DNA of 58,183 bases from a virus (IMGVR_UViG_3300032156_000010:1-58183), one strand, 5' to 3'; counted from the stretch's first letter, positions 139 through 46,547 are shown. The notes: a model not told the origin generated them from the letters alone. Made by a program: numbers and translations.

Positions 139-157
139 TCTCATAAAGTCGTTAAGA

Positions 158-286
158 CCGGGTGTCGTAGGCGACGGATACTTCGACTTATAATCGAGAG
201 GTCGCGGGTTCGATTCCCGTCTGAGTCTTCGGGCTCGGTAGCTCAGTGGCAGAGCGCTTCCGTACCGTCACCGGCTGTTACCCCGG
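158..286 (+). ncRNA. yrlA: YrlA-type Y RNA with tRNA-like domain
   Basis: Outer stem CCGGGT (158-163) pairs with ACCCCGG (280-286). The shared internal loop (GTCGTA / GGCTGTT) and a second stem GGCGACGG/CCGTCACC follow. The tip is a circularly permuted tRNA-like fold: anticodon-like loop CTTATAA at 187-193, variable AGGTC, T arm at 204-220 with loop TTCGATT, acceptor 3' strand CTGAGTC at 221-227, a TTCG tetraloop at 228-231, acceptor 5' strand GGCTCGG at 232-238, TA, and D arm GCTC/GAGC at 241-255. All seven acceptor pairs form (two are G-T). Bacterial YrlA RNAs bind Ro60 orthologues and carry exactly such a tRNA mimic with a closed acceptor stem. The Ro60 gene starts 34 bases downstream. Confidence 0.88.
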
Positions 287-294
287 CTTTTTTT
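270..294 (+). terminator. Rho-independent terminator after the Y RNAs
   Basis: ACCGG and CCCGG can pair around a short loop and are followed by seven T residues (288-294). The 3' strand is the same one that closes the outer stem of the YrlA-type RNA, so the RNA 3' end and the terminator coincide. Some readthrough would be needed to express the Ro60 gene from the same promoter. Confidence 0.65.
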
Positions 295-320
295 ATTTCA
301 ACAGAGGGAGGGCTTCCACA

Positions 321-1850
321 ATGACACCTTTCAACAAATCCACTCAAGGCTCCGAGAAGACCGTCAATTTTGAGGGCGACCTGGCTTTCAATATGGGGCC
401 CCGAGAGGCGCTCTACGCGCTGGCTTGCACATCGAGCCTCCGGCCGAAATTCTATGTACCGGAAGTGGCGAACGAACTAAAGCGGCTGCGGGCACTGATT
501 AAGCGAGTGCCGGCCGAGTTCGTCGCCAAGCTGGCCGTCTATGTTAGGGAGAAGATGTATCTGCGGACAATGCCGCTGGTACTGGCCGTGGAGCTCTGCA
601 GGGTCCACAAGGGCGACGATCTAGTGCGACGGACCGTCCGGCGGGTCATCAAACGGGCCGACGAACTGGCCGAGATTCTGGCCTACTTTGCGGCGGCCGA
701 GGATCGGATCAGCAGGGATCCGCGGTCGAAGATTTTGAACCGGCTGCCGAAGCAGCTCCGCCTCGGGCTGGCCGACGCCTTTAATACCTTCGACGCATAT
801 CAGCTTGCCAAATACGATCGGGAAACGGCGATCAGACTGCGGGACGTCATGTTCCTTGTCCATCCGAAACCGAAGGATGCGAGCCAGGCCGAGATATTCA
901 AGCGCCTGGCCGAGCAGAGGCTTGAGACGCCCTACACCTGGGAGACCGAATTGTCGGCGAAGGGGAATAAAAAGGAGACCTGGGAGGGGCTGATCGATTC
1001 GGGCAAGGTCGGCTATATGGCCCTGCTGCGAAACTTGCGGAACATTCTCAGAGCTGGCGTCTCCAAGAATCACCTCAAGGCGGTCTGCGACAAGATCAGC
1101 AATTCGGTCGAGGTCGCCAAATCTCGTCAACTTCCCTTTCGGTATTTTTCCGCCTATGTTGAGATCTCCGGCAGCGATCAAGCTGTCTTCGAGAAAGCGG
1201 CCGTTTTATTGGCTCTTGAGGCGGCGACTCTTGCCTCGATCGTCAACGTGGCGATCAGCGAGGAGCGGGTCGTGGTGGCCTGCGATTTTTCGGGTTCCAT
1301 GCAGCACAACGTTTCCGAAAAGTCGGTCATCCAAAACCTGGATATCGGGATCGTCCTTGGGGCTCTCCTGAAAAGCAATCGGAAGACGGCGGTGGTCGGT
1401 ATCTTCGGAGATGAATGGAAGGTGATCGATTTTCCGCCCGGCAATATTCTCGGTAATTGCCTCGCTATGCGGAGACGGATTGGGGAAGTGGGTTATTCGA
1501 CTAACGGCCACCTGGCTGTCGAATGGGCCATCGCGAACAAGATCGAAGCCGATCGTTTTTGCATTTTTACAGATTGCCAACTTTGGGATTCGACCTGGGA
1601 TTTGCCTGTCCGCGGATTAAGAATTTCCGGCTATGGAGCGATGAATGATGCTTGGAACAAATACCAGGCTCTTTATCCCAAGGCCCGGCTGACGCTGTTC
1701 GACTTGACCGGCTACGGGACAACGCCGATTTCACTGAGAAGGCGAGACGTGACGCTGATCGCCGGCTGGTCCGATAAGGTTTTCGATGCCCTGGCCGCGA
1801 TCGAGCGAGGCGAGGAGGCTGTATCGGAAGTCGAAAAGATGGAGATATAG
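321..1850 (+). CDS. rsr: Ro60 orthologue (Rsr), TROVE-domain RNA-binding protein
   Basis: A 509-residue protein with the two parts of Ro60: an N-terminal helical-repeat TROVE ring (about residues 1-310) and a C-terminal von Willebrand A domain with a MIDAS motif DFSGS near residue 322. Ro60 is a ring that holds misfolded or structured RNAs in its cavity and Y RNAs on its outer surface; in bacteria the Y RNA can tether Rsr to the exonuclease PNPase. The start at 321 follows a GGGAGGG ribosome site. Three Y-RNA-like hairpins sit directly upstream, so the phage carries a complete Ro/Y pair. Its role in infection is not visible here; stabilising or processing phage or host RNA is the likely theme. 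Confidence 0.93.
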   Translation: MTPFNKSTQGSEKTVNFEGDLAFNMGPREALYALACTSSLRPKFYVPEVANELKRLRALIKRVPAEFVAKLAVYVREKMYLRTMPLVLAVELCRVHKGDDLVRRTVRRVIKRADELAEILAYFAAAEDRISRDPRSKILNRLPKQLRLGLADAFNTFDAYQLAKYDRETAIRLRDVMFLVHPKPKDASQAEIFKRLAEQRLETPYTWETELSAKGNKKETWEGLIDSGKVGYMALLRNLRNILRAGVSKNHLKAVCDKISNSVEVAKSRQLPFRYFSAYVEISGSDQAVFEKAAVLLALEAATLASIVNVAISEERVVVACDFSGSMQHNVSEKSVIQNLDIGIVLGALLKSNRKTAVVGIFGDEWKVIDFPPGNILGNCLAMRRRIGEVGYSTNGHLAVEWAIANKIEADRFCIFTDCQLWDSTWDLPVRGLRISGYGAMNDAWNKYQALYPKARLTLFDLTGYGTTPISLRRRDVTLIAGWSDKVFDALAAIERGEEAVSEVEKMEI

Positions 1851-20484: not shown

Positions 20485-21108
20485 ATGGGTTATAACGGAA
20501 ACTATATCTCCGACACCGACATCACCTGGCCTTCCGGCATATCGGCCGCCGAGAAGCAGGAGATCATCGAGACGGCCGAAGCCGTCCTCGAACACGCCCT
20601 GGCCTGGCGCCCCCGCTTCAGTCATTTCGATATTCGGATGGACGGCAACAGCAAAAACCGGATCATCCTCCCCCTGCGAGAGCGGATCATTGAGGTCTCC
20701 GACGTCTACGTCAACGCTCAAAAACTCGAACCGACCTGGTGGACCCACGATCTGTGCTCCGTCTATCTTGACGCTTGGAGCTCCAACGCCGCTCTTCCCT
20801 CCGATCCCGAGCTCGACCGCCTGTTGAGCGAGAGGGACGGCGGGATCTTCGTCCGCGGTTACAATAACATTCGCATTGTCGGCACCTGCGGAGTGAGTGC
20901 CGTGCCGGCCTGGGCCCGCCGGGCCGTCCGCATGATTGTCGACGCGATGAACGATCCCACGGCCTATACCATCTACCACACGGGCGGCGAGACGATCGGA
21001 CGCTATTCCTACAACAGCCCGGCCGGGGCCTGTAAGACGGGCATTCGGGAAGTTGACGAGCTGCTGAAGCTCTTTGTCCGGAAGAAACCGATCCTCATGG
21101 CCCCATGA
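20485..21108 (+). CDS. Head-tail connector (gp6-like) protein
   Basis: A 207-residue protein with the outline of phage head-completion adaptors: a helical N-terminal region (EKQEIIETAEAVLEHALAWR), a central beta part, then VPAWARRAVRMIVDAMNDP and VDELLKLFVRKKPIL at the C-terminus, resembling gp6/gp15-type connectors. A small AGCCC-GTC-GGGGCT hairpin (20457-20471) lies just before its ribosome site. It overlaps the first gene of the glycan cassette. Confidence 0.65.
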   Translation: MGYNGNYISDTDITWPSGISAAEKQEIIETAEAVLEHALAWRPRFSHFDIRMDGNSKNRIILPLRERIIEVSDVYVNAQKLEPTWWTHDLCSVYLDAWSSNAALPSDPELDRLLSERDGGIFVRGYNNIRIVGTCGVSAVPAWARRAVRMIVDAMNDPTAYTIYHTGGETIGRYSYNSPAGACKTGIREVDELLKLFVRKKPILMAP

Positions 21109-21863
21109 CGATTGCCAAGCGGGCCTTCCCCTTCCAGACTAAACGACGGGAGCTCCGTGATCCTGACCAGGATCCTAATTTTGGAACGCCCGACTGGGGC
21201 AATCGTCACGTCGCCGAGGTATTGCCACAGGGCTGTTGGACCGGCCATCCGTGCGTCATCGTGGGAGGCGGGCCGAGCTTCGAGGCGTTCGACGCCTTTC
21301 GGCTCAAGGGCTGGCGCACGATCGGTGTCAACCGAGCCTTCATTCGTTTCGAACCGACGATCGTTTTTTCCATGGACACTCGCTATTTGAATTGGCTTTT
21401 GGCCGGACAATACGGCGTCTCCGAAAAACTCCATTTTTTGACCCTTCGTTCCTACCGCGTATGGCACCTCGTGAGGCCGGCCACCTTGCCGGGCGAATAC
21501 TATTACGCGCAGGGCTATCGCGGGGCCATCAATGCGCTTGATTCCGTGAGTCTGCGCCTCGAGGAGGGGCTGGGGACGGGAGCTAATTCCGGCTACGGGG
21601 CGTTGAACCTGGCGGTGTTGTTGGGGGCCGCCCCGATTTATTTACTGGGCTTCGACTGTAGCCATACACCGAACGGCCGCACTCACTGGCACGCGGGTCA
21701 TCCGGTGTCTCAAACTCAACGCCATCTTAACGCCTTCATTTCGCATTTCACGGCCGCCGCCCGGGAGTTCAAACGCCTGGCCCGCGGTCCGATCATCAAT
21801 CTAAGCCGCGGAACCGCCCTGCGGTGCTTCGATCTGGGCGACCCCGAGGAGGTATTCCAGTGA
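21105..21863 (+). CDS. DUF115 / MptE-like family protein
   Basis: A 252-residue protein with VIVGGGPSFE near the N-terminus and GANSGYGALNLAVLLGAAPIYLLGFDC in the C-terminal half, signatures of the DUF115 family, which includes motility-accessory (flagellin glycosylation) factors, sialyltransferase-like proteins and MptE. It opens a ten-gene glycan cassette embedded in the structural block; a transferase acting on a sugar of the virion is the natural reading. The stop overlaps the next start. Confidence 0.7.
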   Translation: MTIAKRAFPFQTKRRELRDPDQDPNFGTPDWGNRHVAEVLPQGCWTGHPCVIVGGGPSFEAFDAFRLKGWRTIGVNRAFIRFEPTIVFSMDTRYLNWLLAGQYGVSEKLHFLTLRSYRVWHLVRPATLPGEYYYAQGYRGAINALDSVSLRLEEGLGTGANSGYGALNLAVLLGAAPIYLLGFDCSHTPNGRTHWHAGHPVSQTQRHLNAFISHFTAAAREFKRLARGPIINLSRGTALRCFDLGDPEEVFQ

Positions 21864-38355: not shown

Positions 38356-39750
38356 ATGATGGAAATAAAAAGATGGAATAAGCCCGAACTATCCGCGGCC
38401 ATTACGATCACTATTCTTTTGCTATTTTGTTTTGGCTGCCCCCCGCCCAAACCGATCTGGGTCGATGTTGTCGTCTGCTCTGCCTCTCATCTTCTTCCGA
38501 CGGAAAACTGTCCGGAACGCGTCATCATAAAATTCGAGGCCGGGAAGGAGCCTAAGGATCCCTGCTTCGTTCATCCCGCCGGTCGGGTCAAGGTCTGTAC
38601 CGATACGGGCGAATTAGCCGGCGCCGGCTGTCCATCGATCCATGAAGTTCCGTTCTACGAGAAGCCCACGGATTTTTATTGTCTCCGGCACGCTCGGAAT
38701 CCTCTTCCTCGGCCCCTGCTGATCCTGGCCTGGCTGGACGGGCAAAGCAAAATTCATCGCATGACTGATGAGCAGACTGAGGACGGTTCTCACAAGGTCG
38801 GAGAGGCAGGCGTGAAATATATGCGGATTTTTTATCCCGGCTGGCTTGACGGCCTGGATTGTATCCTCCCCTATCTGCAGGAGGCGGATGGACGATTCAA
38901 TCTTGATCGGCCCAATCCGAAATATGATGAAAACTTGAGGCGCCTGGCCGTCGCGCTGGGGCGCCATGAGGTCGGTCTCCTGATCGACATGGCGGATCAG
39001 TGTGGATGGAATTCGGAATGGGATTTTTGGCGAAAAAACGTGAACGGCGTCTACGGCTGGCAGGATGAATCGGCCGTGGCCTTTGAATACTGGAAGACGG
39101 CCGTCAATAGAGTGATCGAGGATATCGGCGGCCTCGAGGGGAATTTGATCGGGCTTGGGAATGAACTCCGCCATCCGGCCGACGACGATCTGGTAGGCTC
39201 CTGTACGTGGGCCTTGACTTGGGCGGGCAAGCGAGTCGATTATCTCGTCTCTCTCGGCCAACCTCGGCCCGTCCTTTTTTCAGGTTGCTGCAACACGGCT
39301 CACAAAATCATCGGCTGCGTCTCGAGCGAGGACGGATACTATCCCGACAATCGTTTCGTCTCGCTGGTCATTCACGGCATAGGACTTGTCGATCATCAGC
39401 CCGATGGAAAACCGCTGGCGGAATGGTTGGCCGGGCTGTCGGTGACGAGGCCATTCGGCTATTCAACCGACGGCGTCGACACGGCGACCTGGAATCACGT
39501 CCCGCCCGAACGGGCCGGGACTTGTGATAAATTCGGCGGCTGCTCCGGGAATATCGAGGAGACCATCGCCGTCATCCGTCTTTTTGAACGCTACCTTGAC
39601 GAAGGCCGGTTTGTGTCGATCGAATATCTTCCGCGTGAGATCAGCTTTGATGAACCCCTCTCCGCAATCCAACAATTGAGTCTCGATATGTTTTGGCGTA
39701 CCGCTCTCGAAGTCTACGGTGTGGACGTGAGGCGGGCTTTTTCTGATTGA
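38356..39750 (+). CDS. Putative exported glycosidase-like (TIM-barrel) protein
   Basis: A 464-residue protein with an N-terminal hydrophobic segment (about residues 13-27) ending in FCFGC, a lipobox-like but imperfect signal (Cys and Phe precede Gly-Cys). The body from about residue 125 has the strand-helix rhythm of a TIM barrel, with NLIGLGNELRHPAD where the acid/base Glu of clan-A glycosidases would stand, and a late VSIEYLPREI that may supply the second Glu. It could be a polysaccharide depolymerase or an exclusion lipoprotein. Last gene of the late block. Confidence 0.55.
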   Translation: MMEIKRWNKPELSAAITITILLLFCFGCPPPKPIWVDVVVCSASHLLPTENCPERVIIKFEAGKEPKDPCFVHPAGRVKVCTDTGELAGAGCPSIHEVPFYEKPTDFYCLRHARNPLPRPLLILAWLDGQSKIHRMTDEQTEDGSHKVGEAGVKYMRIFYPGWLDGLDCILPYLQEADGRFNLDRPNPKYDENLRRLAVALGRHEVGLLIDMADQCGWNSEWDFWRKNVNGVYGWQDESAVAFEYWKTAVNRVIEDIGGLEGNLIGLGNELRHPADDDLVGSCTWALTWAGKRVDYLVSLGQPRPVLFSGCCNTAHKIIGCVSSEDGYYPDNRFVSLVIHGIGLVDHQPDGKPLAEWLAGLSVTRPFGYSTDGVDTATWNHVPPERAGTCDKFGGCSGNIEETIAVIRLFERYLDEGRFVSIEYLPREISFDEPLSAIQQLSLDMFWRTALEVYGVDVRRAFSD

Positions 39751-39794
39751 AACGCGGAATTTCGTCCGTGCGGCTCCTTTTGCCTCTCTGGTAG

Positions 39795-39904
39795 CCAACG
39801 AGGACCCTCAGGATGGGCCTACAAACGCGCCTGGTGCATTTACTGGCGGGGCCTGTGGAGAGGGTCAAGAGCGGGCTCTCAGGGGCTGTAGGGGCAAAAA
39901 AAAA
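39795..39904 (+). ncRNA. Structured repeat element, copy 2
   Basis: Near-identical, inverted copy of 2330-2440. Fold: GACCCTC (39803-39809) with GAGGGTC (39860-39866), inside it GGCC (39816-39819) with GGCC (39850-39853), then CGCC (39828-39831) with GGCG (39845-39848). The bulged CCTACA (39818-39823) is complementary to TGTAGG (39887-39892), giving a possible pseudoknot. The element ends in nine A residues, which on the minus strand form the T-run of a terminator. The two copies bracket the 37-kb late block. Confidence 0.6.
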
Positions 39905-39951
39905 GGCCCGCTGCGGGCCTTTCCCGCAAACGGGCCTTTTCTTTTCGGCTA
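39896..39951. terminator. Bidirectional terminator between convergent operons
   Basis: GGCCCG-CTG-CGGGCC (39905-39919) flanked by nine A residues on the left gives a strong rho-independent terminator for leftward transcription. For rightward transcription, CCCG-CAAA-CGGG (39923-39934) followed by CCTTTTCTTTT serves. It separates the late block from the convergent leftward operon. Confidence 0.82.
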
Positions 39952-39967
39952 GAATCCTCCTGATCTA

Positions 39968-40765
39968 TCAGGCGTCGTAGGCGTCGCCAGGTTCGCCGCT
40001 CTTAATGCTTTCGACAAAATCATTGATGTTGATGCAGGGATCGTCGCGGAGCCTGATCGCCGCGTTGCAGAGATCGACGAGTTTGCGCTGTTTGTCGAAC
40101 TGTCCGATAAGTGACGTCTGGGCGTGGGTCAGAAAATCAGTGGCGGCGCCGTGAAACGCTCGCAGATTGGATTGGGGATAGACTGTCTCGCGGAGCTGGA
40201 TAAAATCACGGATCGAGGAGCCGGGGATAATCCCGAGCGCGACGGCGGTCAGGGTGAGATAGGAAAATTTCGCCGGATGGAGGCTGTAATCCGTCAGCCC
40301 TGCCTCCCATGCGCCCAAGGCATCGAAGCGAGGGATCGTCTTTTCGATCGCCTCGCAAGATAACGCATAGAGTTCATCGCTTGTCAGGAGTCCCGAATGT
40401 TTACGGAACAGGACCACGTCGCCGCTGAAAGCCAGGTTGTCGCAGACGAAGACCCGCATTCCTACGGCCAGACCGACAGCCATCGACTTGTCCATCGAAT
40501 TTCGGATCCCCAGCGCGAAGCTGCTCTCGAAGCCGTAACGCTTGCCGAAATCCCAAAGGCCAAACATTTTGTGGCCGTTGGCCGAGAGCGAATAAGTCCG
40601 CTTGAGGGGCACTAGGCTCTGCTTTTCGCAGGCGGCACCGATCGTGTCAAGGATTACGGCGTGATGGATGGGGCGCCACGATGCCGTGAAAGGAACCGCG
40701 GACACCGCTCTCACCCTTTCCTCGGTGGTGTAGATAGTATCCCCGTGGGCAATTAAACCGTTCAT
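39968..40765 (-). CDS. DUF932-family protein
   Basis: A 265-residue protein, last in the leftward operon. FALGIRNSMDKSMAVGLAVG followed by RVFVCDNLAFSGDVVLFRKH is the DUF932 / phage-plasmid-related (TIGR03299-like) signature. Function of the family is unknown. A strong AGGAGG precedes the start, with a structured 110-nt leader above it. Confidence 0.75.
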   Translation of the reverse strand: MNGLIAHGDTIYTTEERVRAVSAVPFTASWRPIHHAVILDTIGAACEKQSLVPLKRTYSLSANGHKMFGLWDFGKRYGFESSFALGIRNSMDKSMAVGLAVGMRVFVCDNLAFSGDVVLFRKHSGLLTSDELYALSCEAIEKTIPRFDALGAWEAGLTDYSLHPAKFSYLTLTAVALGIIPGSSIRDFIQLRETVYPQSNLRAFHGAATDFLTHAQTSLIGQFDKQRKLVDLCNAAIRLRDDPCININDFVESIKSGEPGDAYDA

Positions 40766-40875
40766 TTAAAACCTCCTTTACCGCGCCTCCCCGCCAAGTC
40801 CTTTCGGACCCCCCCTTTCTGGCTCGGGGCTTTGGGTCGGGCTGAAGACGGGGCCGCGGGGCCCCGCCCTCCTGG
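40766..40875 (-). ncRNA. Structured leader A before the DUF932 gene
   Basis: Read on the minus strand: a 9-bp hairpin (GGCGGGGCC/GGCCCCGTC) right after the previous stop, then GCCCCGAGCC, AGAAAGGGG, a GTCC-GAAA-GGAC hairpin and the block GGACTTGGCGGGGAGG before the ribosome site. Leader B (41778-41880) has the same order of parts. It stands where other junctions of this operon have hammerhead ribozymes, but the CTGANGA core is absent. I do not recognise the family. Confidence 0.45.
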
Positions 40876-41124
40876 TCATTTGTCTCGCGTGAATTTGTGC
40901 ATCTTCAAGATAGCTTCACAGGCTTCTCTCACCGCATTCCTGTCCCAAGAATCGAGGAACACAAATAGTGCCGTGGGCAACGTCTTCGTCCAAAAATCCT
41001 TTTTCTCGTGTCCCAACTGCTTCCCCAAGGCCAGAGCCGCGATCTCGAAGGTGTTGATGGTTTTTTGCTCGGCTGCGTAGACTTGTGGCGCTGCTTCTCG
41101 GCCGAGAAAGTGGAAGTCGATCAC
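40876..41124 (-). CDS. Hypothetical protein
   Basis: An 82-residue helical protein starting at GTG 41124, overlapping the previous stop (GTGA). Contains INTFEIAALALGKQLGHEK and FVFLDSWDRNAVREACEAI. No family recognised. Translationally coupled to the gene at 41121-41777. Confidence 0.6.
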   Translation of the reverse strand: MIDFHFLGREAAPQVYAAEQKTINTFEIAALALGKQLGHEKKDFWTKTLPTALFVFLDSWDRNAVREACEAILKMHKFTRDK

Positions 41125-41777
41125 TTCTTCGCTCCGGTGGCTTGCTGGACTTCTTCTTCCTGAATTGCCTCCCGCAGCGGCACCAGCCATTTTTGATCAG
41201 GCCGGCAGCCCTTGGGAAGCGCTTCGAGATAGCCGAGACATCCTTTCGCCGCCGTCAATAGCTTTGACGGTTCCTTCGATTCCTTGGCCGGGAGCTTTTT
41301 CTCCTCCCAACGTCGCCAGCCATCACCCGTAAATTTGCCACCAAGCTCATGCTCGATAACCGCTGCGACGTCGGCCGAGATATTTGGCCACGTTCTTTCT
41401 CCGCACATTCCGCAGATATTCTCGGCCTGGAAAACGTCAGGAAGATCGCTTCGCTCAGCATAGTCGCCGACTACGGCAATCCGATCACCGGCCCAGCGCC
41501 CGATGGTCCGCCTGGCAATCTCTGGATACTCCTCGGGCATGGGGCCTGGGCAGGTGTTGTGCTCGAGAAACGTGCGCTCCGGCCCGTGCCAATTCTTGTC
41601 CATGTCCAGATCGCCGCCGCCTCTCGGCTCCGGCATGGCCGCGCAGAGAACGATGAGCGCCGCCCCCGGGCCCGGATAAGCCGAAAGCTGTTCCGACAAT
41701 TTAAGCCCGGACCCAAGGTCGTGCGGGTTGATGAATTCCCGCTTGTCAAGATTGACCACATACCAATATTGTCCCAT
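41121..41777 (-). CDS. Conserved phage-type protein of unknown function (MGQYW family)
   Basis: A 218-residue protein starting MGQYWYVVNLDKREFINPHD, then GSGLKLSEQ. This N-terminus recurs in conserved hypothetical proteins of phages and bacteria, although no function is known. Two CxxC pairs (CGMCGE) and a basic, helical C-terminus are seen. The better-spaced start is at 41777, not at an upstream ATG at 41795. Confidence 0.7.
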   Translation of the reverse strand: MGQYWYVVNLDKREFINPHDLGSGLKLSEQLSAYPGPGAALIVLCAAMPEPRGGGDLDMDKNWHGPERTFLEHNTCPGPMPEEYPEIARRTIGRWAGDRIAVVGDYAERSDLPDVFQAENICGMCGERTWPNISADVAAVIEHELGGKFTGDGWRRWEEKKLPAKESKEPSKLLTAAKGCLGYLEALPKGCRPDQKWLVPLREAIQEEEVQQATGAKK

Positions 41778-41880
41778 TTCCTTGACCTCCTTCATTGGCT
41801 CCCCGGCAAGTCCCCGCCGCGGGGGCTCCGCTTTTCCGCCTCAGCGCGGAGGCTCGGGCAGGAGGCGGGCCAGACCCGCC
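41778..41880 (-). ncRNA. Structured leader B
   Basis: On the minus strand: GGCGGG-TCTGG-CCCGCC hairpin directly after the upstream stop, GCCCGAGCC, GGAAAAGCG, a CCCC/GGGG hairpin, then GGACTTGCCGGGGAGCC and the ribosome site. Same order as leader A, with changed but still paired stems, so the two are likely the same RNA class. Not a hammerhead. Function unknown. Confidence 0.45.
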
Positions 41881-42177
41881 TCACCTCACCACATTCCGGC
41901 AATTGACGATAAGATCATTCAGCATCCCGTGAGCATCTTCGCTCGGCGGTTCCGGCAACATCCCGCCATGGATGACATGGTCGGCAAGTTGGCGAAGAAA
42001 AAGACCAAGTTCGGCCGGGATCTCCACATACCGATATCGCCCGGCTGCCATCTTGATCTTCTCTGCCACTCGTTGATCATGGGCCTTGATCCGCTCAACA
42101 ATGATTCGTTTAAACCGGCTACAGTCATTCGTCTTGGGCCGGCCTCTCGGCCGGCGCCCGATGGATTCGTTGTTCAT
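41881..42177 (-). CDS. Hypothetical basic protein
   Basis: A 98-residue protein with a basic N-terminus (GRRPRGRPKTNDCSRFKRI) like an AT-hook or flexible DNA-binding tail, followed by a helical part. Starts by overlapping the stop of the 53-residue gene before it. Possible DNA-binding protein. Confidence 0.6.
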   Translation of the reverse strand: MNNESIGRRPRGRPKTNDCSRFKRIIVERIKAHDQRVAEKIKMAAGRYRYVEIPAELGLFLRQLADHVIHGGMLPEPPSEDAHGMLNDLIVNCRNVVR

Positions 42178-42335
42178 GATTTCAGCCTCAAGTTCCGTAG
42201 CCGTCCGAAAGCGGTGCTGAGTTTAGCCTCGATCCTGTCCCGGCCAGGCCCGTCCGGCTCGCGCCGCAGAGCGGCGACCAGGCTGGCGATCTTTGCGGCC
42301 CTGGCTCCGGTCCCGTTTTTGGATCTCGAACGCAT
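42174..42335 (-). CDS. Small basic protein behind a hammerhead leader
   Basis: A 53-residue protein (MRSRSKNGTGARAAKIASLV at the start) supported by a strong GGAGG site nine bases before the ATG and by overlap of its stop with the next start. Basic and helical. A longer open frame on the same strand in another phase (42188-42373) has no ribosome site and runs through the ribozyme, so I reject it. Function unknown. Confidence 0.7.
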   Translation of the reverse strand: MRSRSKNGTGARAAKIASLVAALRREPDGPGRDRIEAKLSTAFGRLRNLRLKS

Positions 42336-42364
42336 TTGAAAACCTCCTCATTGAAATTTGACCT

Positions 42365-42427
42365 GCCTTTCATCAGCGCCAGGAGGTCAATCCTAGCGGA
42401 CCGGGCCGCTGATGGCCCGGTTTCGGC
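42365..42427 (-). ncRNA. Type II hammerhead ribozyme 1
   Basis: Minus strand, 5' to 3': GCC, core GAAA, stem III CCGGGCC/GGCCCGG, cleavage triplet GTC, stem I CGCTAGGA/TCCTGGCG (8 bp), core CTGATGA, two extra A, and GGC closing stem II with the first GCC. All conserved hammerhead core bases are present. Predicted cut lies between 42399 and 42398. It begins one base after the preceding stop codon and ends 29 bases before the next ATG. Stem II being the open one defines type II. Confidence 0.88.
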
Positions 42428-42428
42428 T

Positions 42429-42851
42429 TCATTTGGAAAGGACGCGTTTTTCGGATTCCCTCAAGGCGTGCTCGTAAGTCCGGACAGTTGATTTGATTAA
42501 CGGATTAAGCAATCCCGTCGCCTTCCAGCGCCGCCAGGAATACAAGTTACGGACGATCTGATCTAACATCTCGTCGAAATGCGCGGACGTAATCTCGGAG
42601 GAATCCGATTTGAATTTTTCGAGTACCATCTCATTGATTCTTTTGGTGAAAGATTCGAGGGTCAGATCATGTCCATCCCGCTTGGAGAGATCGACGGCCG
42701 TTAAAGCTGCGGAGATAAAATAGGTTATTCCCGACGCGAACCCGGCCGAAAATGTCCCAGCGTCCTCTTCGAGAAATGAAAGGCCCTTGGCGAGCATTGT
42801 TATGTGAGCCAGGATTAGAGCCGTCGTCCTGATGTGATCTTTGGCTTCCAT
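42429..42851 (-). CDS. Hypothetical protein
   Basis: A 140-residue protein, mostly helical, with hydrophobic stretch FSAGFASGITYFISAALTAV that could be amphipathic rather than membrane-spanning. Third gene in a tightly packed trio (43605 to 42429). No family recognised. Confidence 0.6.
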   Translation of the reverse strand: MEAKDHIRTTALILAHITMLAKGLSFLEEDAGTFSAGFASGITYFISAALTAVDLSKRDGHDLTLESFTKRINEMVLEKFKSDSSEITSAHFDEMLDQIVRNLYSWRRWKATGLLNPLIKSTVRTYEHALRESEKRVLSK

Positions 42852-42864
42852 GTCTTTTTTCCTT

Positions 42865-43152
42865 TTAAAAAGCCAAGAGCTTTTTTAGACAGCCGGTATG
42901 GAAAGCCCGCCCTTCCCGCAGCTTGATGTCATCAAGGCCAACCGGTTCGCCGCAATAACCGCAGTAACTCAATCGCCGGATCCCAATGCTGTTCAGCTGG
43001 CCGCCGGCCTCCCTTTCCTTTCGTTCCCGCTCTATGCGGGCTTCCTTGGCTTCAAGACTTCTGACCCGCCTGGCCGCCCGATCCGTCCTCGCTTTGGCGT
43101 CCACCTGGCGCAATAATTCTCGCTGCTGCGCTTTCAATCGGAGCTTTTTCAT
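42865..43152 (-). CDS. Small protein with a helical arm and zinc site
   Basis: A 95-residue protein: a highly charged helix (LRQVDAKARTDRAARRVRSL, about residues 13-60) followed by YCGYCGEPVGLDD and FHTGCLKK, giving three or four metal-type cysteines as in DksA-like or small zinc-finger proteins. The outline of coiled coil then zinc finger suggests an RNA-polymerase accessory, but this is only resemblance. Confidence 0.6.
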   Translation of the reverse strand: MKKLRLKAQQRELLRQVDAKARTDRAARRVRSLEAKEARIERERKEREAGGQLNSIGIRRLSYCGYCGEPVGLDDIKLREGRAFHTGCLKKLLAF

Positions 43153-43155
43153 CTC

Positions 43156-43605
43156 TCAGCCCCCAAACATCTTATTGGTCAGGACACGAAACGCCTCGGT
43201 TGCCGCATTTTTTCTGACGAATATCCGACTTCCCCGCTTGCCGAGCACTGTGCCGGTCGGATAGAGACAGGCCAGGCGGGTGAGCCTTTGCGCATCTTCG
43301 CGGATAATGGCCGTCGCTTCCTCGGGCGTGTGATATTTCGCCCATCCGGCTTTTTTAAACGACTTACGGACTTCGGAGAGAAATTCGCCGGGTGTCATGT
43401 CGGGCTGGTCTTCAATCTTAAATGAGGTCGTCGCCCTCAGGCATTCCATCCCGACCATCGAGCGTCGGCAGCCGCACCGACCGTCCCAGCGGTCGTCGCT
43501 GTCGCACTCCATTGCGAATGTCACCAGTTCGCCTTCGGGTACACAACAGAAGTCCCGTCTGCCCCAATCGCCTTGCGTCTCCTTTGTGGAAACTAATACC
43601 TTCAT
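43156..43605 (-). CDS. Hypothetical protein with DUF7715-like outline
   Basis: A 149-residue protein with MKVLVSTKETQGDWGRRDFC at the N-terminus, then DDRWDGRCGCRRSMVG and a helical C-terminal half. This N-terminal pattern with a CxC segment recurs in actinobacterial and phage hypothetical proteins, so the family name is only a tentative memory. First gene after hammerhead 2. Confidence 0.55.
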   Translation of the reverse strand: MKVLVSTKETQGDWGRRDFCCVPEGELVTFAMECDSDDRWDGRCGCRRSMVGMECLRATTSFKIEDQPDMTPGEFLSEVRKSFKKAGWAKYHTPEEATAIIREDAQRLTRLACLYPTGTVLGKRGSRIFVRKNAATEAFRVLTNKMFGG

Positions 43606-43635
43606 CGAAAACCTCCTCCTGAAAGATTTGACCTT

Positions 43636-43698
43636 GCCTCATCAGGTTGTAGACGGTCGGGCTACAACGACCGAGGCCCCGTGGTCCTCGGTTTCGGC
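43636..43698 (-). ncRNA. Type II hammerhead ribozyme 2
   Basis: The cleanest of the four. Minus strand: GCC, GAAA, stem III CCGAGG/CCTCGG, cleavage GTC, stem I GTTGTAG/CTACAAC (7 bp), CTGATGA, GGC. No core deviation. Predicted cut between 43669 and 43668 gives a 63-nt leader for the next gene. It starts two bases after the previous stop and ends about 30 bases before the ATG. Confidence 0.92.
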
Positions 43699-43700
43699 TT

Positions 43701-43919
43701 TCAGCCTTCCTCCTCGTCTTCTTCTTTCGTTGGTTGAAGCTGGGAATAAGTCCAGTTTTTGTAATCGTCGGCGATCCCGAGACAAACCTCGATCAGCGTC
43801 TTTGCTGCCCGCATTTCCTCTTTGGAATCGCTCACCTCGGCGTTCTCCAGCGCCGACCGGCACGCATTCAAGTCTAGGAGCGTATTCTGGAACCGACAAT
43901 AACTCATATTCGCCATCAT
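43701..43919 (-). CDS. Small hypothetical protein
   Basis: A 72-residue acidic, helical protein (YCRFQNTLLDLNACRSALEN, ending in an Asp/Glu tail). This composition recurs in short phage early proteins that bind host factors. Preceded by GGAGGG. Its stop sits two bases before hammerhead 2. Confidence 0.65.
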   Translation of the reverse strand: MMANMSYCRFQNTLLDLNACRSALENAEVSDSKEEMRAAKTLIEVCLGIADDYKNWTYSQLQPTKEEDEEEG

Positions 43920-43946
43920 CCCCTCCTTCCTGAACGTCTTCTCCCT

Positions 43947-44276
43947 TTAACAAAGCGGTTCGGTATCAACATATCGACGCTCAAAAGCCGCCATGACCAG
44001 TTTGACGATCCGCCCATTTTCCTGCCTTGCAAAAACGACTTTTTTGTGCCGCAACCTTGTCTTGATGACGGTCAGGCAGGATCCATCTCTCGTAAAGAGC
44101 AGCATCCCTTCCCGAAGTTTTAGGAGCAGGGAGCGAGTTTCCTTTGCGTTTCTCCGGTCGAATGTTTTGGCCGGAATAGCCACAAGTTTCTTGATCTTGG
44201 GCGTCCATTCTGTGGCCTTGAGTTTGCATTTGAACAAAGAACGGAAAAAAGAACCGATCCATTTAATGAGTTTCAT
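43947..44276 (-). CDS. Hypothetical basic protein
   Basis: A 109-residue, very basic protein (LIKWIGSFFRSLFKCKLKAT at the N-terminus) with an amphipathic first helix and a small beta domain. The ATG at 44276 is preceded by GGAGG and lies 28 bases after hammerhead 3. Upstream in-frame codons would run through the ribozyme, so I do not use them. Confidence 0.62.
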   Translation of the reverse strand: MKLIKWIGSFFRSLFKCKLKATEWTPKIKKLVAIPAKTFDRRNAKETRSLLLKLREGMLLFTRDGSCLTVIKTRLRHKKVVFARQENGRIVKLVMAAFERRYVDTEPLC

Positions 44277-44304
44277 TCGAAAACCTCCTGAAAAAATTTT
44301 GACC

Positions 44305-44362
44305 CGCCTCGTCAGATCGTGGTCGGTCAAGCCACGATAACCGGGCCGGAGCCCGGTTTCGG
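44305..44362 (-). ncRNA. Type II hammerhead ribozyme 3
   Basis: Minus strand: GCC, GAAA, stem III CCGGGC/GCCCGG, cleavage triplet GTT, stem I ATCGTGG/CCACGAT (7 bp), core CTGACGA (the variable seventh position is C), GGC. NUH allows T at the cleavage position, although GTT is usually slower than GTC. Predicted cut between 44338 and 44337. Begins three bases after the preceding stop codon. Confidence 0.88.
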
Positions 44363-44365
44363 CTT

Positions 44366-44560
44366 TTAGTGGACGTCGAAATACTCCGTGCACGTCCCGA
44401 GCAAATTGTCGTAATCGCCGGACATCGCCTTCTTCATAAATTCGTCCAGCCTTTCCTTCGACCAGCCGGCTTTCTTGGCCGCCCTAGATGCCAGGCCCAA
44501 GACCACGAAGGCGTTGCCGTCCTGTCCGATCAGCGTAAGTTTCGGCTTTGTCTCGTTCAT
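44366..44560 (-). CDS. Small hypothetical protein
   Basis: A 64-residue protein starting by overlap with the preceding stop (ATGA). Contains AFVVLGLASRAAKKAGWSKE and a helical tail ending in acidic residues; this outline is common among short phage proteins annotated only as conserved. Function unknown. Confidence 0.65.
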   Translation of the reverse strand: MNETKPKLTLIGQDGNAFVVLGLASRAAKKAGWSKERLDEFMKKAMSGDYDNLLGTCTEYFDVH

Positions 44561-44901
44561 GATGATCTCCTGATTCGCCGCTGTTCCTTCCTGTACCAGA
44601 GCCGATCCTCATGCCTTCCGATATCCAAATTCTCCCAATCTGCGAGTTGGCAATCGGGCCGCTCAAACCGTTCGGCCATTATTGGCATTGCGGCATAAGG
44701 ACAAAACACGTCGTCCCGGCTGCAGGAAAATTCCTGTGGGTCGCCGGCCCGGGCAGGACACTCTTTTTTCCCCCGTTCTCGCATCCGCCCATCCATGTAA
44801 CCCCTGCAAAAATCTTTGGGGCCGACCGCCAGCACCGGGATGCCCCGCCGTTCGTGATCCACGCCCCGCGCAAAGCCATCTGTGTACATTTTTTTGACCA
44901 T
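44557..44901 (-). CDS. Hypothetical cysteine-containing protein
   Basis: A 114-residue protein with an RDDVFCPYAAMP segment and several further cysteines, rich in Arg and Asp, perhaps a small metal-binding protein. Preceded by GGAGG and by hammerhead 4. Coupled to the next gene. Confidence 0.6.
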   Translation of the reverse strand: MVKKMYTDGFARGVDHERRGIPVLAVGPKDFCRGYMDGRMRERGKKECPARAGDPQEFSCSRDDVFCPYAAMPIMAERFERPDCQLADWENLDIGRHEDRLWYRKEQRRIRRSS

Positions 44902-44928
44902 TGAAAACCTCCTTCGAAAATTTGACTT

Positions 44929-44990
44929 GCCTCATCGGGCTGCGCGTTGTCATCGCGCAGCGACAGGCCCCGGCGGGGGCCTGTTTCGGC
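44929..44990 (-). ncRNA. Type II hammerhead ribozyme 4 (core variant)
   Basis: Minus strand: GCC, GAAA, stem III CAGGCCCC/GGGGCCTG, cleavage GTC, stem I GCTGCGCG/CGCGCAGC (8 bp), core CCGATGA, GGC. The second core base is C in place of the conserved T, so cleavage may be slower or absent. Everything else, including position (two bases after a stop, 27 before an ATG), matches its three neighbours. Predicted cut between 44962 and 44961. Confidence 0.78.
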
Positions 44991-44992
44991 TT

Positions 44993-45412
44993 TCAGATTA
45001 TCCCGGCCGTGATCAGCCAGGATTGGAAACCGTGCGGACATTGGCCATCGGGTTCAACCCGGCAGCCGTCCGTTGCCTTGGCTACGCCATCCATCGCCCA
45101 TCGTTCCATCGTATGGAGTGAAGGTTGACGGATTCCGGCACTACTGATGAAGCCCTGTTTGTCGTGATAGAACTGGAAAAATCGGGTCGTCATTTCTGCC
45201 TGTGTAAATGCCCATTCTTTTTTGTAGCGCCGCCACAACTTCCATTCTCCTAAGAGTGTCTTCCGCAGGATTTCGCCGTCGCTCATGAGGGCAATCAGCG
45301 ACCCTGATTTCGGGTTGAACAGCCGGACAAGTTCCTTCTTGACATTCTTCGTGTGTGGATGCTTTTTTATATACAGCACCACCGCCTCGTGTACGCTCAT
45401 CGATTTTGCCAT
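44993..45412 (-). CDS. First protein of the leftward operon, unknown function
   Basis: A 139-residue, basic, helical protein (VHEAVVLYIKKHPHTKNVKK, then WKLWRRYKKEWAFTQAEMT). May be a nucleic-acid-binding early protein. Preceded by AAGGAGG and a long structured leader. It is the promoter-proximal gene, so it should be the earliest made. Confidence 0.6.
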   Translation of the reverse strand: MAKSMSVHEAVVLYIKKHPHTKNVKKELVRLFNPKSGSLIALMSDGEILRKTLLGEWKLWRRYKKEWAFTQAEMTTRFFQFYHDKQGFISSAGIRQPSLHTMERWAMDGVAKATDGCRVEPDGQCPHGFQSWLITAGII

Positions 45413-45820
45413 CCTGAACCTCCTTAAAAATTTTTATTGGCGCCCTCTCGCACCGGCTACCTAAACCGGCCCCTTTTATTGCGCCGTCAGAGCAAGGCGA
45501 GAGCGGGCAGCGGCCAGTAGGCGCTGACCGTGATCTGCCCATTCGGAGGTTTTGGAGGTTTGTTGTGCTGGTGAATGATTTTCGGTACCTGGCAAATTTT
45601 TACCGCTGCCCCGACGTCTGTTCGGTCTCCTTAGGCTGTCGGGAATATCCCGAATCCGCCGAGACCGTCAGCCGGACAGCGTCATCCGCCGTCCCTACTC
45701 ACCACATTCTTTCTGCGCCTGACGATCAGACCTGGCCTTAGCCGTTCCGTCCGTCCCCTCTGCCTTGGGGCCCGTCAGGCTTTTTTCAAAGATCAATTGC
45801 TACGCCCGGTAGCTGCTTAT
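45413..45820 (-). promoter_or_regulatory. Long untranslated leader of the leftward operon
   Basis: About 400 nt with no convincing gene. It holds several GC-rich hairpins on the minus strand, including GGGCAG...CTGCCC near 45520 and GGCGC...GCGCC (about 45436-45490) next to the first gene, an inverted TCGGGATATTCCCGA hairpin around 45650, and three CTGACGG motifs. A short patch near 45705-45735 resembles the 3' end of the gene at 41881. It may hold antitermination or regulatory sites; no known family recognised. Confidence 0.45.
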
Positions 45821-45849
45821 ATAATAAGTATATCCATTAGTATTGTCAA
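45821..45849 (-). promoter_or_regulatory. Leftward promoter of the hammerhead operon
   Basis: On the minus strand TTGACA (45849-45844), exactly 17 bases, TATTAT (45826-45821). A perfect -35 and 5/6 -10 match in an AT-rich pocket within a GC-rich genome. No other convincing promoter was seen in the leftward block, so all its genes appear to depend on this one. Confidence 0.85.
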
Positions 45850-45922
45850 GACTCTACAGACAATTTATGGAAAATAATCAACTCCGTAAGTTTCTTAAAT
45901 TAAAGGGGTTACGCTTTTTGGG

Positions 45923-45951
45923 TTGATTTTTATGCTAATCTATCTTATTTT
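45923..45951 (+). promoter_or_regulatory. Rightward promoter of the early/replication block
   Basis: TTGATT (45923-45928), 17 bases, TATTTT (45946-45951), with TATAAT also present slightly downstream. It faces away from the leftward promoter, about 75 bases apart, so this AT-rich gap is the main divergent early control region. The first product is a ribbon-helix-helix protein that could bind here. Confidence 0.6.
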
Positions 45952-45982
45952 ATAATAGATTGCCAGATAAAGGAGGCGTGGA

Positions 45983-46174
45983 ATGAGGCAGAAAATCGGG
46001 GAGCCCAAAAGCTCCACCATAACATTCACCCTTGAGCCCTCGCTGAGGGCCAGGTTGGAGACGCAGGCAAGGCAGGAGGGCCGGTCGGTGTCGAGCATGA
46101 TCAGACAGCTTGTGATGACCGCCCTCCATCGAGAAGTCCGCCCGCTCGAGACGCGGACTCCGGCTCCGAAATAA
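45983..46174 (+). CDS. Ribbon-helix-helix transcriptional regulator (CopG/Arc-like)
   Basis: A 63-residue protein with STITFTLEPSLRARLETQAR and EGRSVSSMIRQLVMTAL, the strand-helix-helix pattern of RHH DNA-binding proteins; the strand residues contact the operator as a dimer. It lies directly downstream of the divergent promoters and has an AGGAGG site. A regulator of early transcription is the natural role. Confidence 0.85.
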   Translation: MRQKIGEPKSSTITFTLEPSLRARLETQARQEGRSVSSMIRQLVMTALHREVRPLETRTPAPK

Positions 46175-46178
46175 AGTT

Positions 46179-46547
46179 ATGGCATCGGCCAGGCCGAAGT
46201 GCCGCTTTATTTTTTGCCGAAAATCATTTATCCCAAAACGGCCTTGGCAGACATTCTGCCGATATAATCATCAAAAAGCCCAAGAGCGGTTTGAGCGCGG
46301 AGCGATAAATATTTTCTCAATCAACCTGCAGGCGCTAGCCGACTTTGTGGCTAAAGTGAAGGGGGTGAGAATCAGGGGAAGATCAGATTTTAAAATCAAG
46401 AAGTCGAGGAACAAAAAGGCCCCGGCCTTTTTGTCTCGAGTTGGGAGATCAAGGTCGGAGCGGGCCCCGGGGGGGCCGAAGAGGCGTGCTATCCACAAGG
46501 TAGGTTCCGGCCGGATGATTGTCAAGAGGGAGAAAAAAAATGATTGA
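46179..46547 (+). CDS. Small basic protein with N-terminal zinc-finger-like site
   Basis: A 122-residue, strongly basic protein. KCRFIFCRKSF and FCRYNHQKAQ at the N-terminus provide cysteines and His spaced like a small CGNR- or transposase-associated zinc finger. A long low-complexity basic tail follows. Likely nucleic-acid-binding. Overlaps the next gene by eight bases. Confidence 0.6.
   Translation: MASARPKCRFIFCRKSFIPKRPWQTFCRYNHQKAQERFERGAINIFSINLQALADFVAKVKGVRIRGRSDFKIKKSRNKKAPAFLSRVGRSRSERAPGGPKRRAIHKVGSGRMIVKREKKND

What the first reader, a model, noticed from the sequence alone, without database searches (positions are those of the whole stretch)
42365..44990. Four type II hammerhead ribozymes punctuating one phage operon
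Seen: at 42365-42427, 43636-43698, 44305-44362 and 44929-44990 the minus strand has GCC-GAAA-stem III-NUH-stem I-CTGANGA-GGC, with stems that differ completely in sequence but pair in every copy. Each begins 1-4 nt after a stop codon and ends 27-31 nt before the next ATG, so cleavage would give each downstream message a uniform ~60-63 nt leader. Known: type II hammerheads occur in bacterial and phage sequences, usually singly. A series acting as processing signals between small genes is, to my knowledge, not a standard description.
Basis: partly seen in the sequence, partly recalled or inferred. Interest (0 to 1): 0.95.

Follow-up and report, generated by a model that had tools for sequence, protein, structure and literature searches.

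The report
Self-cutting RNAs between phage genes
A phage gene cluster carries four self-cutting RNA elements (type II hammerhead ribozymes), each wedged between a stop codon and the next gene's ribosome-binding site; they very probably chop one long message into small ones. The same arrangement was described in prophages in 2011 and proves common in phages.

Summary
The four elements are real. Rfam calls all four Hammerhead_II, two over and two under its curated cut-off. A stem-and-core scanner finds exactly these four, and none scoring 18 or more in 491 randomised windows. All four can form the loop I to 3'-tail pseudoknot known for type II, just upstream of AGGAGG.

The novelty claim fails. 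Perreault et al. 2011 described clustered hammerheads flanking single genes in prophages, proposed processing into single-gene mRNAs, and showed cleavage of three tandem arrangements. Arrays of 2-11 type II hammerheads turned up in many unrelated phage contigs.

63% of 281 ribozymes abut the upstream stop codon (-3 to +5 nt; control 3%). The median leader from cut to start is 59 nt, all 115 neighbouring pairs share a strand, and the arrays are almost purely type II. Best explanation: natural counterparts of ribozyme insulators. Activity and benefit are not shown here.

The parts
44929..44990 (-). Type II hammerhead, copy 4: GCC-GAAA, stem III 9 bp, GUC, stem I 8 bp, core CCGATGA (U4C), GGC; predicted cut 44962/44961; possible pseudoknot UGAC/GUCA
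   Evidence: Rfam 31.6 bits, below gathering score; scanner score 24; stems I and III P>=0.98 in native context
44306..44363 (-). Type II hammerhead, copy 3: triplet GUU, core CTGACGA; predicted cut 44339/44338; possible pseudoknot UUGACC/GGUCAA (6 bp)
   Evidence: Rfam 37.7 bits, over gathering score; scanner score 26
43636..43698 (-). Type II hammerhead, copy 2: fully canonical core, GUC; predicted cut 43669/43668; possible pseudoknot GACC/GGUC
   Evidence: Rfam 29.4 bits, below gathering score; scanner score 24
42365..42427 (-). Type II hammerhead, copy 1: core CTGATGA with an AA insertion before stem II, GUC; predicted cut 42399/42398; possible pseudoknot UUGACC/GGUCAA
   Evidence: Rfam 46.3 bits, over gathering score; scanner score 24
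44902..44928 (-). 3' tail of copy 4 (pseudoknot strand GTCAAA) and ribosome-binding site AAGGAGGTTTTC; equivalents at 44277-44305, 43606-43635 and 42336-42364
   Evidence: sequence; alignment of the four cassettes, tail and RBS nearly invariant while stem arms vary
44993..45412 (-). Block 1: 139-aa ORF upstream of copy 4
   Evidence: no PHROG
44366..44901 (-). Block 2: 114-aa ORF and 64-aa ORF (phrog_1933), stop and start overlapping (ATGA)
43701..44276 (-). Block 3: 109-aa and 72-aa ORFs (72-aa: phrog_8760)
42429..43605 (-). Block 4: 149-, 95- and 140-aa ORFs, closely spaced
41881..42335 (-). Block 5: 53- and 98-aa ORFs after copy 1
45821..45849 (-). Promoter-like site TTGACA-17-TATTAT (11 of 12), the only minus-strand promoter-like match in 39700-46200; candidate single promoter of the operon
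   Evidence: a consensus match only

Best explanation
The four elements are type II hammerhead ribozymes that punctuate one leftward phage transcript. As each is transcribed it folds (stems I, II and III plus the loop I to 3'-tail pseudoknot) and cuts 3' of H17. Because stem II is the open stem, each cut would leave a hairpin at both new ends. The upstream message keeps its stop codon and ends in the stem III hairpin with a 2',3'-cyclic phosphate. The downstream message begins with the stem I hairpin and a 5'-OH, followed about 60 nt later by a strong Shine-Dalgarno and ATG. The transcript becomes blocks of one to three genes, each with a standard leader independent of what lies upstream: the logic of the engineered RiboJ insulator, and of host RNase III cutting of phage T7 early RNA (the latter from own knowledge), but needing no host enzyme. 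Shown here: motif, layout, statistics, recurrence. Inferred: cleavage of these four copies, the single transcript, and the benefit (uniform leaders and protected ends).
For: Rfam and scanner identification. In 149 viral pattern hits chosen without regard to stems, 87% form the stems versus 0.4% with shuffled interiors. Loop I to tail pseudoknot of 4 bp or more in 74% versus 44% with swapped tails, 5 bp or more in 46% versus 17%. The upstream stop codon ends within -3 to +5 nt of stem II in 63% versus 3% for shifted positions. SD plus start within 80 nt in 136 of 177, versus 19% for random positions. Median cut-to-start distance 59 nt, interquartile 55-66. All 115 neighbouring pairs share a strand. 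Arrays of 2-11 copies recur. In the window every ribozyme sits in an 89-95-nt gap, while the genes between ribozymes overlap or are closely spaced. Published: tandem hammerhead arrangements cut in vitro, one in E. coli (PMC3088659). Hairpinned 5' ends hinder RppH and RNase E (PMC3997798). Ribozyme insulators normalise the 5' UTR, with cleavage of about 0.84-0.94 for most parts (PMC7536230).
Against: No cleavage or 5'-end data for this phage. Three of four copies depart from the canonical core or triplet (AA insertion, GUU, U4C), and two score below Rfam's cut-off. Cleavage can destabilise rather than protect: glmS self-cleavage gives a 5'-OH mRNA degraded by RNase J1 in B. subtilis (PMC3997798). 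Predicted change in SD accessibility on cleavage is small (0.51 to 0.55 unpaired). Flush placement after stop codons may reflect only genome compaction. Two other gaps of comparable length in the region (41796-41880, 40766-40875) lack a hammerhead.
Confidence: 0.68

Rival explanations
1. Down-regulation rather than insulation: self-cleavage exposes 5'-OH and cyclic-phosphate ends and speeds decay of the accessory mRNAs, keeping these genes at low or transient levels, as in glmS.
For: The glmS precedent: a 5'-OH mRNA degraded by RNase J1 after ribozyme cleavage (PMC3997798).
Against: Each cut is followed within about 60 nt by a strong SD and start, and preceded by an intact stop codon, so both products keep complete ORFs. 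Both new ends are hairpinned.
Confidence: 0.13
2. Regulated switch: cleavage is gated, for example by a ribosome terminating at the abutting stop codon (which would cover stem II and GAAA) or by the competing pairing of the tail with loop I, coupling upstream translation to downstream release.
For: Flush stop codons. In pseudoknot-free folds, stem I of copies 1-3 competes with alternative pairings (P 0.01-0.33).
Against: The competition is partly an artefact of leaving out the pseudoknot. SD accessibility barely changes. Flushness is explained by compaction. No ligand-binding domain is seen.
Confidence: 0.08
3. Selfish or neutral module linkers: ribozyme plus RBS cassettes that spread by duplication or recombination and serve mainly as shared sequence for swapping accessory genes; cleavage is incidental.
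For: Cassette ends and RBS nearly invariant in the window. Copies within an array resemble each other more than between arrays, stem III 0.71 versus 0.47. Flanking genes are not constant: only 2 of 80 loci with relatives of the 64-aa protein carry hammerheads.
Against: Pairing and pseudoknot are kept while stem sequences diverge, which needs selection on the folded RNA.
Confidence: 0.08
4. Chance or degenerate hammerhead-like hairpins without catalytic activity.
For: Non-canonical features in three copies; two below Rfam's gathering score.
Against: No comparable score in 491 random windows; four on one strand, each in an intergenic gap, each with a possible pseudoknot.
Confidence: 0.03

Closest known systems
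Clustered hammerheads in prophages (Perreault et al. 2011, PMC3088659; e.g. Clostridium scindens, Azorhizobium caulinodans, Agrobacterium tumefaciens with ardA)
   Same: Several hammerheads close together, flanking single genes or short blocks; processing into shorter mRNAs proposed; pseudoknot of loop I with the 3' tail; cleavage shown
   Different: Here a series of four in an otherwise unmatched phage, all type II, with a strict stop/ribozyme/SD layout; two variant cores and one GUU triplet
Hammerhead_II, Rfam RF02276
   Same: Core, permutation, tail; all four matched over the whole model
   Different: Two copies under the gathering score; AA insertion in copy 1, U4C in copy 4
RiboJ-type ribozyme insulators (synthetic; PMC7536230)
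   Same: Hammerhead placed before an RBS so that cleavage sets a uniform 5' UTR
   Different: Engineered, sTRSV-derived (own knowledge), with an added 23-nt hairpin; here natural, type II, between genes of an operon, with a pseudoknot reaching to the RBS
Host RNase III processing of T7 early RNA (own knowledge)
   Same: Phage polycistronic RNA cut at hairpins between genes into short mRNAs
   Different: Protein enzyme of the host; here the RNA would cut itself
glmS ribozyme
   Same: Self-cleavage in an mRNA leader leaving a 5'-OH upstream of the ORF
   Different: Ligand-dependent, represses one host gene; different fold

Membership tests
Hammerhead ribozyme, type II (RF02276) | Three stems around the core with stem II open (GAAA-stem III-UH-stem I-CUGANGA) | tested here: met
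   exceptions: U4C in copy 4, AA insertion in copy 1
Hammerhead ribozyme, type II (RF02276) | Score at or above Rfam gathering cut-off (37 bits) | tested here: inconclusive
   copies 1 and 3: 46.3 and 37.7; copies 4 and 2: 31.6 and 29.4
Hammerhead ribozyme, type II (RF02276) | Cleavable NUH triplet (H not G) | tested here: met
   GUC in three copies, GUU in copy 3
Hammerhead ribozyme, type II (RF02276) | Loop I to 3' tail pseudoknot of 4 bp or more (typical, not obligatory) | tested here: met
   4-6 bp in all four; survey 74% versus 44% with swapped tails
Hammerhead ribozyme, type II (RF02276) | Self-cleavage leaving 2',3'-cyclic phosphate and 5'-OH | not testable with these tools
   needs in-vitro transcription or 5'-OH RNA-seq
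Clustered prophage hammerheads (Perreault 2011) | Two or more hammerheads near each other on one strand, flanking individual genes or short blocks | tested here: met
   four within 2.7 kb between blocks of 1-3 ORFs
Clustered prophage hammerheads (Perreault 2011) | Phage or prophage context | tested here: met
   IMG/VR virus record with portal, head-morphogenesis and tape-measure matches
RiboJ-like insulator (function, not descent) | Cleavage makes downstream expression independent of upstream sequence | not testable with these tools
   layout compatible; no expression data

The most novel reading that the evidence does not exclude
Phages across many lineages use a standard stop codon / type II hammerhead / pseudoknot / SD cassette as a transferable, host-independent punctuation and insulation device. 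The type II permutation would be preferred because it alone leaves hairpins on both new mRNA ends, and cleavage may be timed by the ribosome terminating at the abutting stop codon.
Probability: 0.22. Interest if true: 0.65.

Novelty: new member of a known kind. Interest (0 to 1): 0.38.

Why it matters
The biological role of phage hammerheads has been called unknown since 2011, and again in 2023 (PMC10085705). The regular layout measured here (flush stop codon, roughly 55-65-nt leader to the start, type-pure same-strand arrays) makes the question testable. It predicts exact 5'-OH ends, protected hairpin termini and insulated expression, and it points to natural ribozyme insulators that might be useful genetic parts.

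Tried and rejected
(1) Close relatives of this phage, to see whether orthologous ribozymes covary. The 140-aa protein and the portal found none and the 265-aa DUF932-like protein one 39% relative without hammerheads; DNA search in phages found nothing useful. (2) A link of the ribozymes to a particular gene. The 64-aa phrog_1933 protein also lies next to or within about 1 kb of hammerheads in L060, L044 and L054, but only 2 of 80 loci with its relatives carry hammerheads within 3 kb, and four named phage relatives have none. Rejected. (3) Cleavage as an SD-unmasking switch. The predicted change is small. (4) Type I or III hammerheads mixed into the arrays. Rfam models found none in 18 array-bearing records, though the type I search rang nowhere and so proves little. 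My own descriptors (90-98% sensitive on permuted controls) found one type III in about 130 loci. Loci were picked by type II hits, so this does not speak for phages in general. (5) Other ribozyme classes in the window: no Rfam match at E<=1. (6) A common function of ribozyme-led genes. They are small (median 102 aa) and mostly unknown; ArdA, GemA, Mu transposase, DUF932 and HNH each occur once or twice.

Full report
Observation. The four elements lie on the minus strand of a 58,183-base IMG/VR virus record with portal, head-morphogenesis and tape-measure matches. Rfam matches all four to Hammerhead_II along the whole model: 46.3 and 37.7 bits over the curated cut-off of 37, and 31.6 and 29.4 under it. 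[quoted passage not shown] in 491 Markov-randomised windows the highest score was 17. They are not chance.

Corrections. Copy 1 has two extra A between A9 and stem II. Copy 3 has the triplet GUU, so its cut should fall at 44339/44338. Only copy 2 is canonical throughout. All four can pair loop I with the GTCAAA-containing tail (4-6 bp as scored), the pseudoknot reported for type II hammerheads (PMC3088659). Perreault et al. note that U4C lowers activity strongly in vitro but still permits viroid infectivity, so the variants may be slower, not necessarily dead.

Layout in the window. Stop codon, 1-2 nt, ribozyme, 27-30 nt holding the pseudoknot strand and a strong SD (AGGAGGTTTTC), then ATG. 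Leaders from cut to ATG are 60-63 nt. The ribozymes fill gaps of 89-95 nt; the genes between ribozymes overlap or are at most 27 nt apart, so the ribozymes divide the operon into blocks of one to three ORFs. The cassette ends and the RBS are nearly invariant, while the stem arms differ and still pair. One promoter-like site (TTGACA-17-TATTAT) lies upstream of the whole operon and is the only such match on the minus strand in 39700-46200.

Survey. Of the viral pattern hits 87% also form the stems, against 0.4% when the interiors are shuffled. Many contigs hold arrays; Rfam counts 11 in the phage of L014, 9 in that of L080 and 7 each in those of L007 and L022. All 115 neighbouring pairs within 3 kb (97 viral, 18 genomic) share a strand; the median spacing is about 550 nt.

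Layout in the survey. In 281 ribozymes the stop codon of the upstream ORF ends within -3 to +5 nt of stem II in 63%, against 3% for shifted positions, with the peak at -1 and 0, the closest that the GCC of stem II allows. The median cut-to-start distance is 59 nt, interquartile 55-66. Caveats: the loci were seeded with a canonical motif and were not made non-redundant, and ORFs were called by simple rules.

Mechanism. In the type II permutation the cut falls between two closed hairpins. Upstream mRNA would end in stem III, downstream mRNA would begin with stem I. This follows from the fold; that it protects the ends is inference. Support: hairpinned 5' ends block RppH and RNase E (PMC3997798). 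Against: glmS cleavage leads to decay by RNase J1 (same source). The closest working analogue is the RiboJ insulator, a hammerhead placed to normalise the 5' UTR (PMC7536230). Predicted SD accessibility rises only slightly on cleavage, so this is not a simple unmasking switch. Nested folding gives low stem I probability for copies 1-3; since the method cannot hold the pseudoknot, this is weak evidence either way.

Literature. Perreault et al. [quoted passage not shown] coli. A 2017 review repeats the clustering around small ORFs. A 2023 paper says that the reason for these associations remains unknown. I found no paper that states the flush stop codon or the constant leader length, but subscription papers are not held and figures could not be read, so this is not a claim of priority.

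Verdict. A well-supported new instance of a known kind, with a quantified layout that makes a long-open question testable.

Noticed in passing
45413-45850, minus strand: A leader of about 400 nt between the promoter-like site and the first ORF of the operon folds far better than shuffles (z -3.7) and matches no Rfam family at E<=1, no phage record by distant blastn and none of the fetched loci significantly: possibly an unknown structured RNA.
   Followed up: partly
155-1850, plus strand: A Y-RNA-like (YrlA) match with a tRNA-Ile(TAT)-like fold at its 5' part overlaps the start of a Ro60 (TROVE plus vWA domain) ORF: a phage-encoded Ro60/Y RNA pair.
   Followed up: no
L014 (67,627-base phage contig): Eleven type II hammerheads in one phage record, the largest array seen.
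   Followed up: partly
41796-41880 and 40766-40875, minus strand: Two further gaps of 85 and 110 nt in the region hold GC-rich hairpins but no hammerhead; they do not fold better than shuffles.
   Followed up: partly
43156-43605, minus strand; L123:8522-8887: The 149-aa protein behind copy 2 has a 39% relative in another hammerhead-array phage, where the ribozyme follows the gene instead of preceding it.
   Followed up: partly
21105-21863, plus strand: Protein matching the PHROG of an alpha-2,3-sialyltransferase (E 6.5e-25) among the structural genes.
   Followed up: no
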